DNA of 64,000 nucleotides, from assembly GCF_000264995.1 (NCBI RefSeq), contig NW_006767448.1, positions 186,001 through 250,000 on the forward strand, in the 5' to 3' direction. The notes below the pieces were generated by a model that made no database searches, was not told the origin of the DNA, and was given only the letters and a program-made list of their open reading frames with translations. A program made the translations under genes and the position numbers. This DNA is from Punctularia strigosozonata HHB-11173 SS5. Lineage: Eukaryota; Basidiomycota; Agaricomycetes; Corticiales; Punctulariaceae. Shown piece after piece: positions 3,587-46,718 of the stretch (positions are counted from its first letter, which is position 1; the number at the start of each line of letters is the position of its first letter).

Positions 3587-4052
3587 TCCACGGTTTGGCT
3601 AAGCGGGTGAGGGGAAGAGGACAAGTTACAGGTGGGAGTTCGTTGTGGAGTGTGCAGTCCTTGAGAACGCGAATGCGGATGAAATCATGGGGTCAGAAAT
3701 CGTGCTGCACCCAGTCTGAGGTTAGGGTCCGCTACCTGCATACACACGTGAGTAAGGTGGCGCATTCCGCCTCCCCTTGCAGTTTGCTCGAGTAAATCTA
3801 TATCAATGCGCATGCGTATACAATTAAAGTGGTATCAGACAGTTGGTACAGTCAGAGCCGAGTCTGAACGGATGCGGGAACCTTGTTCTACCTGTTGTGG
3901 AGACACTTCGTCAGATCACTGTGGTCCGAGCACAAAATACCATCGTTTGATTCAATCCTGTTGGGCCCATGTGCTGTACATTGCCCTACACCCACAAGGA
4001 GGCTTGTTCGGAATGGCCCAAACAAATCTCGAGTCCTTGCATCAAAGCAGTG
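3587..4052. other. Intergenic gap
   Basis: Upstream of the membrane protein gene and outside the duplicated block that begins at 4053. It should hold that gene's promoter. No gene is supported. A TGGTATCAGA stretch at 3830-3839 resembles a primer-binding site but stands alone. Confidence 0.5.
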
Positions 4053-4235: not shown

Positions 4236-5061
4236 CTAGCAGACGTGCGTGGTCGAACCCTCGCACCACTGCGACACGTCGTCGTTACCGTTGTGCCCAC
4301 AGACAGCAATGTCTGTGTAGCTCGGTCCGGTTGAGTCGCGGCGATGGATGACGTCCATCGTCACCGGGATCTCTTCAGCTGGGCCACTGTAGTCCGAATT
4401 GTAAACAGCCGGTCCTATGCAGAACCACGTCAATGGTGACTCCTCGTGAGCATCAATGACAACGTACCTCCGGTATGGTAGGTGTATGTCGCGACGAGGC
4501 ACTTGCCGCTCCCGTAGTCGTAATAAACACCACAGCCACAATCGCCGTACCCGCTATCCGCGCAGGTCTTGATCACGGCCTTCTCGAGGAGCGCGTAAGC
4601 ATAGCAGTCCATGATACCGTCGTTCCAGACATCGTACTGGCCGACGTAGGCACAGCCGGTCTGCGAAACGGCGTCGGCGGAGTTACAAAGCACGTTGTAC
4701 TCCTCGCCGTTCGTGCAGAACTGCCCGGTGTTCGAGCCGGAGAACCATTTCTGAACGGCGTCGTAGATGTCGGTGTATTCTGGAGACTGAATGGCGCCGG
4801 CACCGGTACATCCGATGTCAAACGTCCAATCGGTGCTTCTGGTTACACGACTGTTGAGACGAGGAGTGGGTCAGGTACACCATTACAAAAGGGGGCGGCA
4901 GAGTGAACGCACCTAGTGACATTTGTCCATTCCTGCGGCATGGTCCGCACGGCGTCAACGGCCTCGCTCCAAGAAGTATATCGTGTGTCGTGAGCTAGAG
5001 CTGTCGCAGCCCAAAGCGTTATCGTTGGTAGTAAGGTAAAGGTCGTAAAGGTCGTCTTCAT
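4236..5061 (-). CDS. Cysteine-rich small secreted protein, copy A
   Basis: Predicted secreted protein of 236 residues that I do not recognise. The start ATG (5059-5061) opens a signal peptide with hydrophobic core TLLPTITLWAATALA and likely cleavage near residues 22-24. Three exons and two introns have the same layout as copy B at 54527-55352. The mature part has twelve cysteines (for instance DIGCTG, GQFCTNG, CADSGYGDCGCG and the C-terminal THVC), enough for six disulfides, and ends on cysteine. By eye it differs from copy B at one residue (Thr29 here, Ala29 there) and about ten synonymous sites. A TATA box lies 55-61 bases upstream. It could be an effector-like or cell-wall protein, but no enzyme or lectin motif is visible. 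Confidence 0.85.
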
Positions 5062-5284: not shown

Positions 5285-5966
5285 AGCAAGACCGTGCACA
5301 TGACCACGAATATCTGAACGAGCGGGTATCGGCCACGGGTGAACTATGTATTTGGGCATCAAGCCGAAGACGAAATCATCCTGTCTTGGTCTTCATGACC
5401 CTTTCTACTGGACAGCTTGGGGCGGCAGTCATTCAAACACTGAGTGTGTTCTGTGTCCAGGAAACGGCTGTGGCAAGCGAGGGAACGTCGGAAGGAGTGG
5501 GTTATGGACGGATCTGGGTTGCGGATAGCGGACCAACGCGGAACCTCAACACGGGGGCTGCCAATTATGGGAAGTCCCGACGGAGAGTACTTGCGCCACT
5601 CGCTGACCAGTTCGAGGTTACGCCCCGCCGAGTCCCGCCCGGCAGAGCTATGGCCGCATCCCGTCCTATTTCTTCCGATTTCATGATGGATGCACTATGC
5701 GCACAGCCAGACTACTTCCTAGGCCTATGTGCCCTATGGTTGACTCATCTCACTTGGTTCACGTCGCACACAACCTGATCACTCTCAGATTACGCTTCCT
5801 TCCGGCGAGACTTTGCTCAGGAACTTGTGGATAAACCGTCGCGGACAGTCCAAACCGCACAGGACAACTTGAACTAAGCAGGCCGGACTGACACGACCGC
5901 GTTCATTTCACTGTACACGACAAAAAGCTCTCGCTGGGTATACTAGTCATACATCGCTCGTTCCAG
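5285..5966. other. Intergenic gap
   Basis: Lies between the end of the duplicated block and the 3' end of the F-box-like gene. Several short open frames occur on the plus strand, but none has splice sites, domain motifs or convincing composition. I see no supported gene. Confidence 0.5.
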
Positions 5967-42692: not shown

Positions 42693-45600
42693 ATGCCTCC
42701 TCGCGCACGCGGCAGCACCAGCCGCGGTAATACCCAGCCAGCACGAGGTGCGCCCGCCCGCGGTGGCGGACCAGCTCGTGGTGGACGGGGTGGTACAGCT
42801 ATCGCCCTTGGGGGCGCTGCCGGTCAGCCAGGGCTCCCCGTGACGCACGTCGCCGCCGTCGGCATCAAGCGAACGGCCTTCGGTCGCGCTGGGAAACCTC
42901 TCAGGATACTCACGAATCATTTCCCCGTAACAGAGCCCAGCGGAACGGTGCGCCACTACGATGGTGAGGACTCATTTTGAGATGACCTACTTCGATGACC
43001 GATTAAGTTATCGTGGTGTGATCTTCGCAGTGGGTGAGTGTCCGGGATTTTATGTCGAGCTTGAGACAGATTCCCATGTTTCGTCGCATGACAGAAATTT
43101 CGCCGAGCAACAAGATATTGCCCGTCCCATTCAATCGCAAAATAATCAAGGCGATGCAAGACGGACATCCTGAGATGTTCAAGCCTCAGGGTTCCTACGA
43201 CGGCAGGAAGAACTTGTATACCATGCACGATCTTCCCTTCGGCAACGATGATCAGGGTAACCCGGTTTTATCGAGAATTGTACGTGTCTTCGAGTAGCGT
43301 GCGCTGTCGGTTGATTCACACTGGTCCCTACTCCTTAGTTCGAAGTTTATCTGCCGGATGATGCTCCGCGTGGCAAGGAGCAGAAGCCAAAGCGTCCTTT
43401 CCGGGTCAAACTAACAAGGGTCGCGCTGATCAATCTCGAGTATGATCATCAATAGCTATTTCCACTGTAATAGGCCGTTGACATCGTCGTGTAGGCCGTT
43501 GGTACGGTTCCTTGAAGGCAAGAAAACGTACGATCCCGACATGCAGACGGGCATCAACGTACGCGCATATCAAATGTACATTACACGGGTTGATCAACTT
43601 GTATGCAACAGGCGCTCGATATCGCGATCCACATGGCTCCCAGTTTGCTGTACCCGACCAATGGCCGGTCATTCTTCACAAGCCAGGAGACTCGGAGTCA
43701 GTGATGCGAGCCTCAGTCTTGGAAAAAATTCTGACAATGTCTGTCAGATATCGGTGGTGGCATGGAGTTGTGGCGCGGCTATTTCCAGTCGATCAGGCCG
43801 GCGATTGGTCGTATGCTCGTGAACGTGAGAGCACGACCGTCTCCTCGCTGACGATTGCTTAACCCGAGAATTTACTAGGTCGATATTTCTACGGGAATGA
43901 TGTTCAAGCCCGGCAGGTTGTTCGACCTCTGTATCGACCATCTCGGCCTGAAGCCCGGGGATTACGCGGCTCTGTCTCCAGCCAGAGGCATGCCCGACTC
44001 GAAGCGTCTTCAGCTCCGGCACTTCCTGATGGGAGTGCGCGTACAGGTTGAGGTTGATACCAGCGGACGACCGATAGGCGATGCCCGGCCCATCAGTGGC
44101 CTAAGCTTGGCGGGCGCCTCCCAAGAGATGTTCGAGATGCGCAGCGAGCAAGGTATGTGGAAAGTGTTCCCCACCCCGAAACCGTTGCCTGATGTTGCTT
44201 GTAGGAGGGCAGATGATTTCCGTTGCTGAATACTACCGCCGTTACAAGAATCGGACACTACAGTTCCCTCAGGTGCTTTGTGTTCGGGTGAGTTGTCGAA
44301 TGACCCTGCCTACATCCTGGTTCAATCAAACCTACATCCCGTAGCTTGGGCGGGCGTTGATCCCAATGGAGCTGTGCTACGTCCCTCCAGGGCAGGTTAT
44401 GAAGCGGCAGATGCCCCAGGACAAGGCGAATGATGTCGTTCAGTTCGCGACCATGAAACCTCCTGAGCGCCTCGCGAGCATCAGGCGCGGACTGACTATA
44501 TTGAACTACGGGCAGAGCCAGTATATCGCCAGCTTTGGCCTGCAGGTCTCTGAGGCGCCGGTCCAGATGACGGCCCGCCAGCTGGCCCCTCCGAGGATGA
44601 GATATGCTCCCGGAAGCCGCGAGCCTATGATTGTTAGCCGAATCCGTCATCGCCCCTTTCTTTCACGTGTGACTGATAGAAATATAATAGACTCCCAAGG
44701 GTGGAGCGTGGAACATGTATGTACACCCGCGATATTTTGCCCCTTATTGTGCTGAAGCAAGATGTCCAGGGTCGACAAGAAGTTCTGGAATCCCGCAACC
44801 ATCAAGTACTGGGCGGTGGTCATCTTCGAACGCCCGAACCGCTTCCGAGAAGATAATGCTGCAAGCACCGTAAGGGGCTTGATCGAAGCCGCGACTGCGT
44901 GTGGTAAGTCTGATATAGCTATAATTTGTCCTCAACTCATATCGGCTAGGCATGGTGGTGCATGACAAAAATCCCTTGGTTGACTACGCCAATGGACAAG
45001 GAAATATCCACCAAGTTAGCCGCATTGCGTACGCTCTGGCAGTCCCGGGCTGACTCAGGGGCAGCAATTATTGCAGATCGGGATCAAAATTAAGCAGGCA
45101 AAGAATGAATTGCCTAACTTGATCGTCTGTGTGATGCCTGATCAAAGCGCAGATCTTTACTCTGCGATTAAGCAGTAAGCCAGGTTTAACTTGTCGGAAC
45201 ATAATATGCTTATACGGGTTCTGATGCAGCTTCGGCGATATCACAGTGAGTTACCGATCTGCCAATCCTGACTATGCTGCTTGGTTTGACCGTCGGTTCC
45301 TTAGACTGGCGTAGCCACGCAATGCCTGAAAAGCTCGAAATGCTTCAGAGCAAATCAACAATACTTCGCCAATGTGTGTCTTAAGTGAGTCTTTCTCTAT
45401 GCAATTGGAGATCGTTACGTTGACGCTTGCAGGATCAACGGCAAACTTGGCGGAGTGGACCGCGTACCAGATCCGCAGTCGGTCCCTGCTTTGACTGACC
45501 CGGCCAATCCCGCCATCGTCATGGGTAAGGCGATCATGCAGTCTGTTGAGCCAGCGCTAAGGTGTTTTTGGTAGGTGCCGATACGATGCACCCGGCGCCC

Positions 45601-46718
45601 GGGGCCACCGGACGACCGTCCTATGCGTCGCTCGTAGCAAGCGTGGACTCTCATGCGTGCAGGTACATCGCTCAATCGCGAGTGCAAGTGTCTCGACAGG
45701 AAATGATAGCTGATCTCAAGGACATGTGCAAAGTATGTGCGAACACTAGTCGCTGATAATTGCATAAGTACTCACCCGGGAATCGTAGCATTCGCTGGAC
45801 ATGTATATGAAGAGTCCGTACCGCTCCGCGGAGGAGAGAGCTCGCAAAAAAGCCCCGGCTAGACTGATTTTCTACCGAGGTAAGTGAAGATCTTGTGCCG
45901 CATCCCGATGTGCCCTAAATGATGATCCCATCAGATGGAGTGTCGGAGTCGCAGCTGCAGCAGGTGCTCGACAACGAGCTGACACAAATTCAAGGTACCC
46001 GTTCCCACTCTTGCGGAGGACCGATCTCTCACGCATGCGTTGCAGAGGCTTGTAAGGAGCTTGGGATCGACCCGAAAATTACTCTGTTTGTTGTTGGCAA
46101 GCGGCACCATACCCGCTTGTTCCCGGAAGATCCGCGAGACGCAGACCGGTCGGGGAACTGTCCCGCTGGAACCGTGGTCGACAATGTGATCACCCATCCG
46201 GTGGAGTCCGACTTCTACCTCCTCAGTCACGGTGGTCTTCTCGGGACCTCGCGCCCCGCCCATTATAACCCTGTTTACGACTCGAATAATTTCACGTGCG
46301 TCCAGTAGCTACTTTGTGAGGCTTCGGTTGACTGAGCTCGGTTTCTATGCAGCGCGGACGATATTCAGGCGCTAACCTTTGCGCTCTGCCATAACTATGC
46401 TCGCGCAACACGCTCGGTGTCTATTCCGGCCCCGGTCTACTGTATGATATCTCCCGGTTCTCTTCGTTGTCACCGCTCATGATCCATCCTAGACGCGGAC
46501 ATAGTTTGTGCCCGCGCGAAGCATCACTATGCACCTGACGCCCATCTTAACTACACTGAGACGATGACTCAGTCTAGCGACCAAGCAGCAGCGACCCTGC
46601 GAAGTTTCACTGATTTGTTCAAGCCATTGCATACTCAGACGGTGGGCAGCCCCCAACTTGATCTTGACATTCTAACTCACATCTGTTCCTATAGTCACGA
46701 ACCATGTACTTCCTCTGA
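42693..46718 (+). CDS. AGO: Argonaute (RNA-silencing slicer)
   Basis: Argonaute protein of the RNAi pathway, roughly 930 residues in about 20 exons. After a Gly/Arg/Ala-rich N-terminus ([12 protein letters not shown]) come the N domain ([17 protein letters not shown]), linker 1 ([20 protein letters not shown]), PAZ ([37 protein letters not shown]), linker 2/MID ([40 protein letters not shown]) and PIWI. All four slicer residues are visible: Asp in VMGADTMHP, Glu in SRQEMIADL, Asp in YRDGVSES and His in [18 protein letters not shown]. The guide-binding RHHTRLF and [14 protein letters not shown] motifs are kept. The end is found by splicing: PLHTQT joins to SRTMYFL, stop at 46716-46718. Exon 2 is inferred to be only three bases (43031-43033). 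Confidence 0.95.

What the first reader, a model, noticed from the sequence alone, without database searches (positions are those of the whole stretch)
42964..43094. Three-base exon inferred in the Argonaute gene
Exon 1 ends CAC TAC GAT G before GTGAGG, and exon 3 starts AA ATT TCG after GACAG. Between them TGG (43031-43033) is framed by an exact acceptor (CTTCGCAG) and donor (GTGAGT), giving two introns of 67 and 61 bases, the normal size here. Including TGG reads HYDVEISP, keeping the Val that usually follows His-Tyr-Asp in this family. Skipping it also stays in frame (HYDEISP), with one unusually long 131-base intron. A 3-nt exon is near the lower limit known for any eukaryote, and being frame-neutral it could be alternatively included.
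Basis: partly seen in the sequence, partly recalled or inferred. Interest (0 to 1): 0.75.

Follow-up and report, generated by a model that had tools for sequence, protein, structure and literature searches.

The report
Conserved three-base exon in fungal Argonautes
A fungal Argonaute gene very probably contains an exon of only three bases, and a three-base exon sits at the same place in three other Argonaute genes of the same fungus, so it looks real and long kept rather than a chance match, although no transcript has been seen.

Summary
Exon 1 (42693-42963) ends in GAT G, TGG (43031-43033) lies between CTTCGCAG and GTGAGT, and exon 3 starts at 43095. TGG is the only frame-keeping, stop-free internal exon that GT-AG rules allow in the 131-base gap; the other 20 introns of my gene model are 44-59 bases. 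Inclusion gives HYDVEISP, aligning without a gap to AGO4 (HYDVDIKP), and beats skipping by 5.3-7.1 bits against 24 of 24 matched PDB sequences.

The strongest evidence comes from the same genome. Six Argonaute loci were found. In three besides the window's, the homologous place reads AG|TTG|GT, AG|CTA|GT and AG|CTT|GT: same position, phase and length. Exon letters differ, and the flanking introns of the closest pairs show no similarity. Chance for three of three is about 2e-7 if independent. The remaining two loci have no intron there. Inferred exons of 8 and 10 bases in these paralogs cannot be skipped in frame, which argues for constitutive inclusion.

No RNA was available, and I found nothing that argues for alternative splicing. 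This is a new, old-looking member of a known kind (microexons; one-base exons are published).

The parts
42693..46718 (+). Argonaute gene, coding span from ATG to TGA; 23 exons with the 3-base exon counted (ArgoN, ArgoL1, PAZ, ArgoL2, Mid, Piwi domains)
   Evidence: hand splice model; Pfam
42693..42963 (+). exon 1, 271 bases, ends ...CAC TAC GAT G (phase 1)
42964..43030 (+). intron 1, 67 bases, GTGAGG...CTTCGCAG
   Evidence: site scores
43031..43033 (+). three-base exon TGG; with its neighbours it completes GTG (Val) and starts GAA (Glu) of HYDVEISP
   Evidence: paralog copies
43034..43094 (+). intron 2, 61 bases, GTGAGT...GACAG
   Evidence: site scores
43095..43279 (+). exon 3, 185 bases, starts AA ATT TCG (phase 1)
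45230..45245 (+). another short exon of the same gene, 16 bases; the paralog L011 has a 10-base exon at the same place

Best explanation
TGG at 43031-43033 is a genuine, constitutively included three-base coding exon of a fungal Argonaute. Two short introns (67 and 61 bases) are each recognised by intron definition and removed one after the other, leaving GATG-TGG-AAATT and so HYDVEISP in a conserved stretch of the N domain. The exon arose before the duplications that made the window's Argonaute and three others in this genome; its length, position and phase were kept because the residue count at this place of the protein is fixed, while its letters and both introns changed. Shown: the sites, the frame, the protein fit and the shared anatomy in four paralogs. 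Inferred: actual inclusion in mRNA, the order of splicing, and constitutive rather than regulated use.
For: (1) Coordinates and frames check exactly. (2) TGG is the only open frame-neutral internal exon possible in the gap. (3) Inclusion aligns without a gap to AGO4 HYDVDIKP and AGO1 HYEVDIKP; skipping forces a gap in all 5 displayed alignments (1 AGO4, 4 AGO1) and lowers 24 of 24 matched PDB sequences (argonaute-1, -2, -3, -4 and -10 by name) by 5.3-7.1 bits; Pfam ArgoN 92.1 against 90.0 bits (the skipped form was given only as its first 261 residues, which hold the whole domain). (4) L011 (70% Piwi identity to the window) has HYD[G|TTG|TA]ISP with introns 53 and 67; L012 (48%) QYD[G|CTA|TA]ITP with 61 and 49; L013 (51%) QYE[A|CTT|CG]ITP with 56 and 56. 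No other exon length from 1 to 30 is shared by even two of the four gaps. (5) In the spliced alignment of L011 at the lowest intron penalty, 23 of 24 introns are 46-61 bases and only the one here is long (123). (6) The eight internal sites (acceptor and donor beside the 3-base exon, four copies) score at the 41st to 77th percentile of 83 curated introns. (7) Background 54 of 9359 windows, about 2e-7 for 3 of 3; shuffles of the three paralog gaps give 0.35%, 0.075% and 0.175% (4000 each). (8) In 10 of 12 flanking-intron comparisons, including those within both close pairs, there is no similarity above shuffles. (9) Inferred exons of 8 bases in L012 and L013 and of 10 bases in L011 cannot be skipped in frame.
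Against: No transcript or peptide data could be obtained. Of the eight introns that flank the 3-base exon in the four genes, three (both of the window's and the second of L011) lack a YTNAY branch-like motif starting 9-45 bases before their end, against 13 of 83 curated introns; the window's second has one at 46. The 43094 acceptor is at the 24th percentile, though the skipped form needs it too. My spliced aligner never placed the 3-base exon by itself: in L011 it chose one 123-base intron at all three penalties, in L012 it drew one 239-base intron across the region, and in L013 it did not reach this part of the gene. The L012 and L013 copies were therefore read by eye with the window's pattern in mind, which leaves some freedom, for example in the L013 end acceptor. 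The intron-length argument holds only for the window and L011; the L012 and L013 alignments contain other long gaps. With any GT donor allowed the chance figure is about 8e-5. Two of 12 intron comparisons (both window with L012) reached P of 0.01 or less, so full independence is not proven. No sequences from other species could be compared at the DNA level.
Confidence: 0.88

Rival explanations
1. There is one 131-base intron (42964-43094) and TGG between AG and GT is a chance match; the protein is HYDEISP, one residue shorter.
For: The skipped form stays in frame and needs no very small exon. YAG-NNN-GT alone is common: 1.45 per kb over both strands. A spliced aligner prefers the single intron in L011.
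Against: It needs the only over-long intron in the window gene and in L011, a one-residue deletion in a conserved stretch, and matching coincidences at one homologous place in three more genes.
Confidence: 0.05
2. The exon is real but regulated: it is included or skipped to make Argonautes that differ by one residue in the N domain.
For: All four copies are 3 bases long, so skipping never breaks the frame. A 3-base alternatively spliced exon is published for Drosophila homothorax (PMC7392893, abstract seen), and a switch-like fungal microexon for Trichoderma Xlr2 (PMC11121469, passages seen).
Against: Length 3 is also what a fixed protein length demands. Internal splice sites are of ordinary strength, flanking introns are short, and the inferred 8- and 10-base exons of the same family must be constitutive to keep the frame.
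Confidence: 0.06
3. The exon letters or the gap are an assembly or gene-model artefact, or the locus is a pseudogene.
For: One assembly only; no reads seen.
Against: The gene reads open through 23 exons (2847 coding bases) to a C-terminal MYFL and stop, with six Pfam Argonaute domains, and the same anatomy recurs at three other places in the assembly.
Confidence: 0.01

Closest known systems
One-nucleotide exon of Fusarium CYP621A (PMC12940212; parts 1 and 2 of 3 of the text read)
   Same: Fungal gene; inferred from a protein motif plus a double-length gap (139 bases against a median of 56 in F. graminearum); reported in 20 orthologs; 18 RNA reads from two species confirm it.
   Different: 1 base, ascomycete, breaks the frame if skipped; ours is 3 bases, frame-neutral, seen across paralogs of one genome and without RNA.
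Single-nucleotide exon of Arabidopsis APC11 (PMC4674806; abstract and introduction seen) and plant APC11/VPS55 1-nt exons (PMC8831610; passages seen)
   Same: Ultra-short exon in a conserved protein, missed in annotation; some gene copies there are intronless, as L009 and L010 are at this place.
   Different: Plants; other genes; 1 base.
3-bp exon of Drosophila homothorax (PMC7392893; abstract seen) and the 3-nt Ncam exon (named in PMC8042270; passages seen)
   Same: Exon of exactly 3 bases.
   Different: Animals; the homothorax one is alternatively spliced, whereas here inclusion is probably constitutive.
Phanerochaete chrysosporium P450 microexons (PMC1184071; passages seen)
   Same: White-rot basidiomycete genes with many 45-55 base introns and tiny exons.
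   Different: Shortest reported there is 6 bases; P450 genes.
Trichoderma virens Xlr2 microexon (PMC11121469; passages seen)
   Same: Microexon in a filamentous fungus, absent from most gene models.
   Different: Ascomycete transcription factor; regulated by glucose; no regulation is shown here.

Membership tests
Microexon (exon of 30 bases or fewer) | size, flanked by canonical GT-AG introns | tested here: met
   3 bases between CTTCGCAG and GTGAGT; acceptor at the 54th and donor at the 77th percentile of curated introns
Microexon (exon of 30 bases or fewer) | present in spliced transcripts | not testable with these tools
Microexon (exon of 30 bases or fewer) | conserved in related genes | tested here: met
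   3 of the 5 other Argonaute loci found have it; the remaining 2 have no intron at this place
Alternatively spliced (switch-like) microexon | both inclusion and skipping observed | not testable with these tools
   frame-neutral in 4 of 4 copies, but no expression data
Eukaryotic Argonaute | N, L1, PAZ, L2, Mid and Piwi domains in order | tested here: met
   six Pfam families over their cut-offs, in order
Eukaryotic Argonaute | catalytic residues of the Piwi domain | not tested
   not examined

The most novel reading that the evidence does not exclude
A three-base exon has been kept through old Argonaute duplications not only because it is needed for protein length but because its frame-neutral skipping is used: all four Argonautes can be made with or without one residue in the N domain, giving an on/off or specificity setting for RNA silencing.
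Probability: 0.06. Interest if true: 0.8.

Novelty: new member of a known kind. Interest (0 to 1): 0.5.

Why it matters
If it is spliced as inferred, it is a very small and probably constitutive exon in a fungus. Four copies in one genome, with different exon letters and unlike introns, would show that neither the exon's own sequence nor shared intron sequence is needed for its recognition, which makes a clean natural test of intron definition. In practice, Argonaute proteins predicted from this genome, and perhaps from relatives, are likely to lack one conserved residue wherever gene finders skip such an exon.

Tried and rejected
De novo intron catalogues from about 299 kb of the genome, masked stretches included, were too noisy: codon bias is weak (0.12 bits per codon on this gene), and decoy motifs, which allowed more acceptor triplets, gave more hits than the real ones (2251 and 2035 against 778). 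I therefore used introns of the Argonautes themselves. That set of 83 is filtered: window 20 (the two at issue left out), L011 23 of 24 (the 123-base one left out), L012 19 of 27 and L013 21 of 24 (only lengths 41-70 with start beyond 1400 kept). Its length range is therefore informative only for the window and L011.

Searches for relatives outside this genome found nothing: 27 pattern matches in viral contigs and 293 in genome contigs, none a relative. The metagenome collection has a cap of zero and was not tried. Ten paper searches showed no report of a microexon in a fungal Argonaute among the papers listed; several lists were cut (for example 30 of 61, 15 of 40, 15 of 1,120), I saw titles and starts of abstracts, and the library holds open-licence PubMed Central papers only.

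Considered and rejected: other frame-neutral exons in the gap (3 of 4 carry stops); duplication of an intron with its exon bases (would add a residue, yet the protein has the family length); a shifted GT or AG supplying the missing codon with a single intron (none lies at the needed places in the list). In L012 a second, overlapping candidate, AG|TAC|GTCTCT, also keeps the frame but has a poor donor. In L013 I took the acceptor TATCAG; the earlier GCTGTAG would add residues; both readings use the same 3-base exon.

Full report
What is there. The window lies in an unnamed 33.6-Mb genome; many short introns and the kind of Argonaute suggest a basidiomycete (my inference, species not determined). 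The gene runs from ATG at 42693 to TGA ending at 46718 in 23 exons, and carries ArgoN, ArgoL1, PAZ, ArgoL2, Mid and Piwi in order. Exon 1 ends GAT G at 42963. Next come a 67-base intron, TGG at 43031-43033, a 61-base intron, and exon 3 from 43095.

Why TGG should be included. The other 20 introns of the gene are 44-59 bases, so a single 131-base intron would be the outlier. Of 14 internal exons that GT/AG pairs allow with introns of at least 40 bases, 4 keep the frame and 3 of those contain a stop; only TGG is open. Inclusion reads HYDVEISP and aligns without a gap to AGO4 (HYDVDIKP) and AGO1 (HYEVDIKP). That these two are human proteins is recalled, not shown in the output. Skipping opens a gap in all 5 displayed alignments and costs 5.3-7.1 bits against 24 of 24 matched PDB sequences, which go by five names, argonaute-1, -2, -3, -4 and -10. 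ArgoN falls from 92.1 to 90.0 bits. A deletion of any aligned residue would cost something, so this alone is supportive rather than decisive.

The paralogs. Searches of the genome with the Piwi, ArgoL1, PAZ and ArgoN models point to six Argonaute loci (the tool scores only its best candidates, so six is a lower bound). I examined this place in all six. Two, L009 (C1) and L010 (C10), read straight through it without an intron (YDVSITP; YYDYVIEVKP). The other three besides the window each have a gap of 113-123 bases after [HQ]Y[DE], and in each the middle holds a 3-base exon in phase 1 between canonical sites. L011 (C4, minus strand, TTG at 4728-4726) gives HYDVVISP. L012 (C12, plus strand, CTA at 1045-1047) gives QYDAIITP. 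L013 (C12, minus strand, CTT at 6205-6203) gives QYETSITP. Of exon lengths 1 to 30 with a YAG acceptor and GTRNG donor, length 3 occurs in 4 of 4 gaps and the only other hit is length 26 in 1 of 4. These placements are mine. The spliced aligner, which pays a penalty for each intron, drew one 123-base intron in L011 and one 239-base intron in L012, and did not reach this region in L013. At its highest penalty it also merged two other L011 introns across the 10-base exon into one of 95, so it drops small exons in general.

How unlikely is that by chance? The window copy was chosen because it has the motif, so only the other three are a test. In 9359 windows of 123 bases from the fetched genome, both strands, 54 have the motif with at least 44 bases on each side (0.58%), giving about 2e-7 for three of three; with any GT donor it is 405 of 9359 and about 8e-5. 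Dinucleotide shuffles of the three gaps give 0.35%, 0.075% and 0.175% (4000 each; 3.35%, 2.65% and 3.3% with any GT donor). These products assume independence and fixed gap borders. Flanking introns of the closest pairs (window-L011, L012-L013, at 70% and 72% Piwi identity) show no similarity; of all 12 comparisons two, both window-L012, reach P of 0.01 or below. Independence is therefore reasonable but not proven.

Splice-site quality. Against 83 curated introns of the family (filters in Tried and rejected), the eight internal sites score between the 41st and 77th percentile. The weakest point is the branch site. 70 of 83 curated introns have YTNAY starting 9-45 bases before the end, but only 5 of the 8 introns flanking the 3-base exon do; both window introns and the second of L011 do not.

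How it probably works. A model from work on C. elegans PRP-40, called speculative by its authors, holds that recognition across a microexon is sterically infeasible, so that such exons depend on intron definition, which is the default for short introns (PMC8378409, passages seen). Here both introns are short, so each can be paired across itself, one after the other. Order of removal is unknown. The same family also contains inferred exons of 8 bases (L012, L013), 10 bases (L011), 12 bases (L012, L013) and 16 bases (window). The 8- and 10-base ones would shift the frame if skipped, so this organism presumably includes tiny exons constitutively.

History. On an unrooted Piwi-region tree the six fall into three pairs, window-L011, L012-L013 and L009-L010. 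The exon is in both intron-rich pairs and absent from the pair with fewer introns. The simplest reading is presence in the ancestor of the four, before duplications now at about 50% Piwi identity. Whether L009 and L010 lost it or never had it depends on the root, which was not tested.

Place among known things. Exons of 1 base (Arabidopsis APC11, PMC4674806; Fusarium CYP621A, PMC12940212) and 3 bases (Drosophila homothorax, PMC7392893) are published. The Fusarium paper used the same line of reasoning, a double-length gap inside a conserved motif, and then found RNA reads that confirmed it. This is thus a new member of a known kind. Its distinction is its presence across old paralogs with differing exon letters, in a core RNA-silencing gene. 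The absence of RNA keeps the confidence below certainty.

Noticed in passing
L012:4687-4698 (+) and L013 reverse-complement coordinates 4932-4943: A 12-base exon in both paralogs codes the HHA (and parts of the two flanking Arg codons) of the Piwi KRHHARF motif; in the window gene this motif lies inside one exon. The downstream introns end in AAG and GAG, less usual acceptors.
   Followed up: partly
L012:5261-5268 (+) and L013 reverse-complement coordinates 5485-5492: An 8-base exon near the C-terminus (VYYAD) in both paralogs; not a multiple of three, so it must be included for the frame.
   Followed up: partly
window 45230-45245 and L011 reverse-complement coordinates 4031-4040: A 16-base exon in the window gene and a 10-base exon at the same place in its closest paralog: the small exon has changed length by two codons.
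   Followed up: partly
window 46695-46718: The last coding exon is only 24 bases and encodes SRTMYFL and the stop.
   Followed up: no
L012:1049-1051: L012 has a second, overlapping 3-base candidate, AG|TAC|GTCTCT, in frame but with a poor donor; the two could compete.
   Followed up: no
L009 and L010: Two further Argonautes of this genome look much poorer in introns (10, one of them a doubtful 1140-base gap, and 7 in the spliced alignments) than L011, L012 and L013 (24, 27 and 24, the last over only part of the gene).
   Followed up: no
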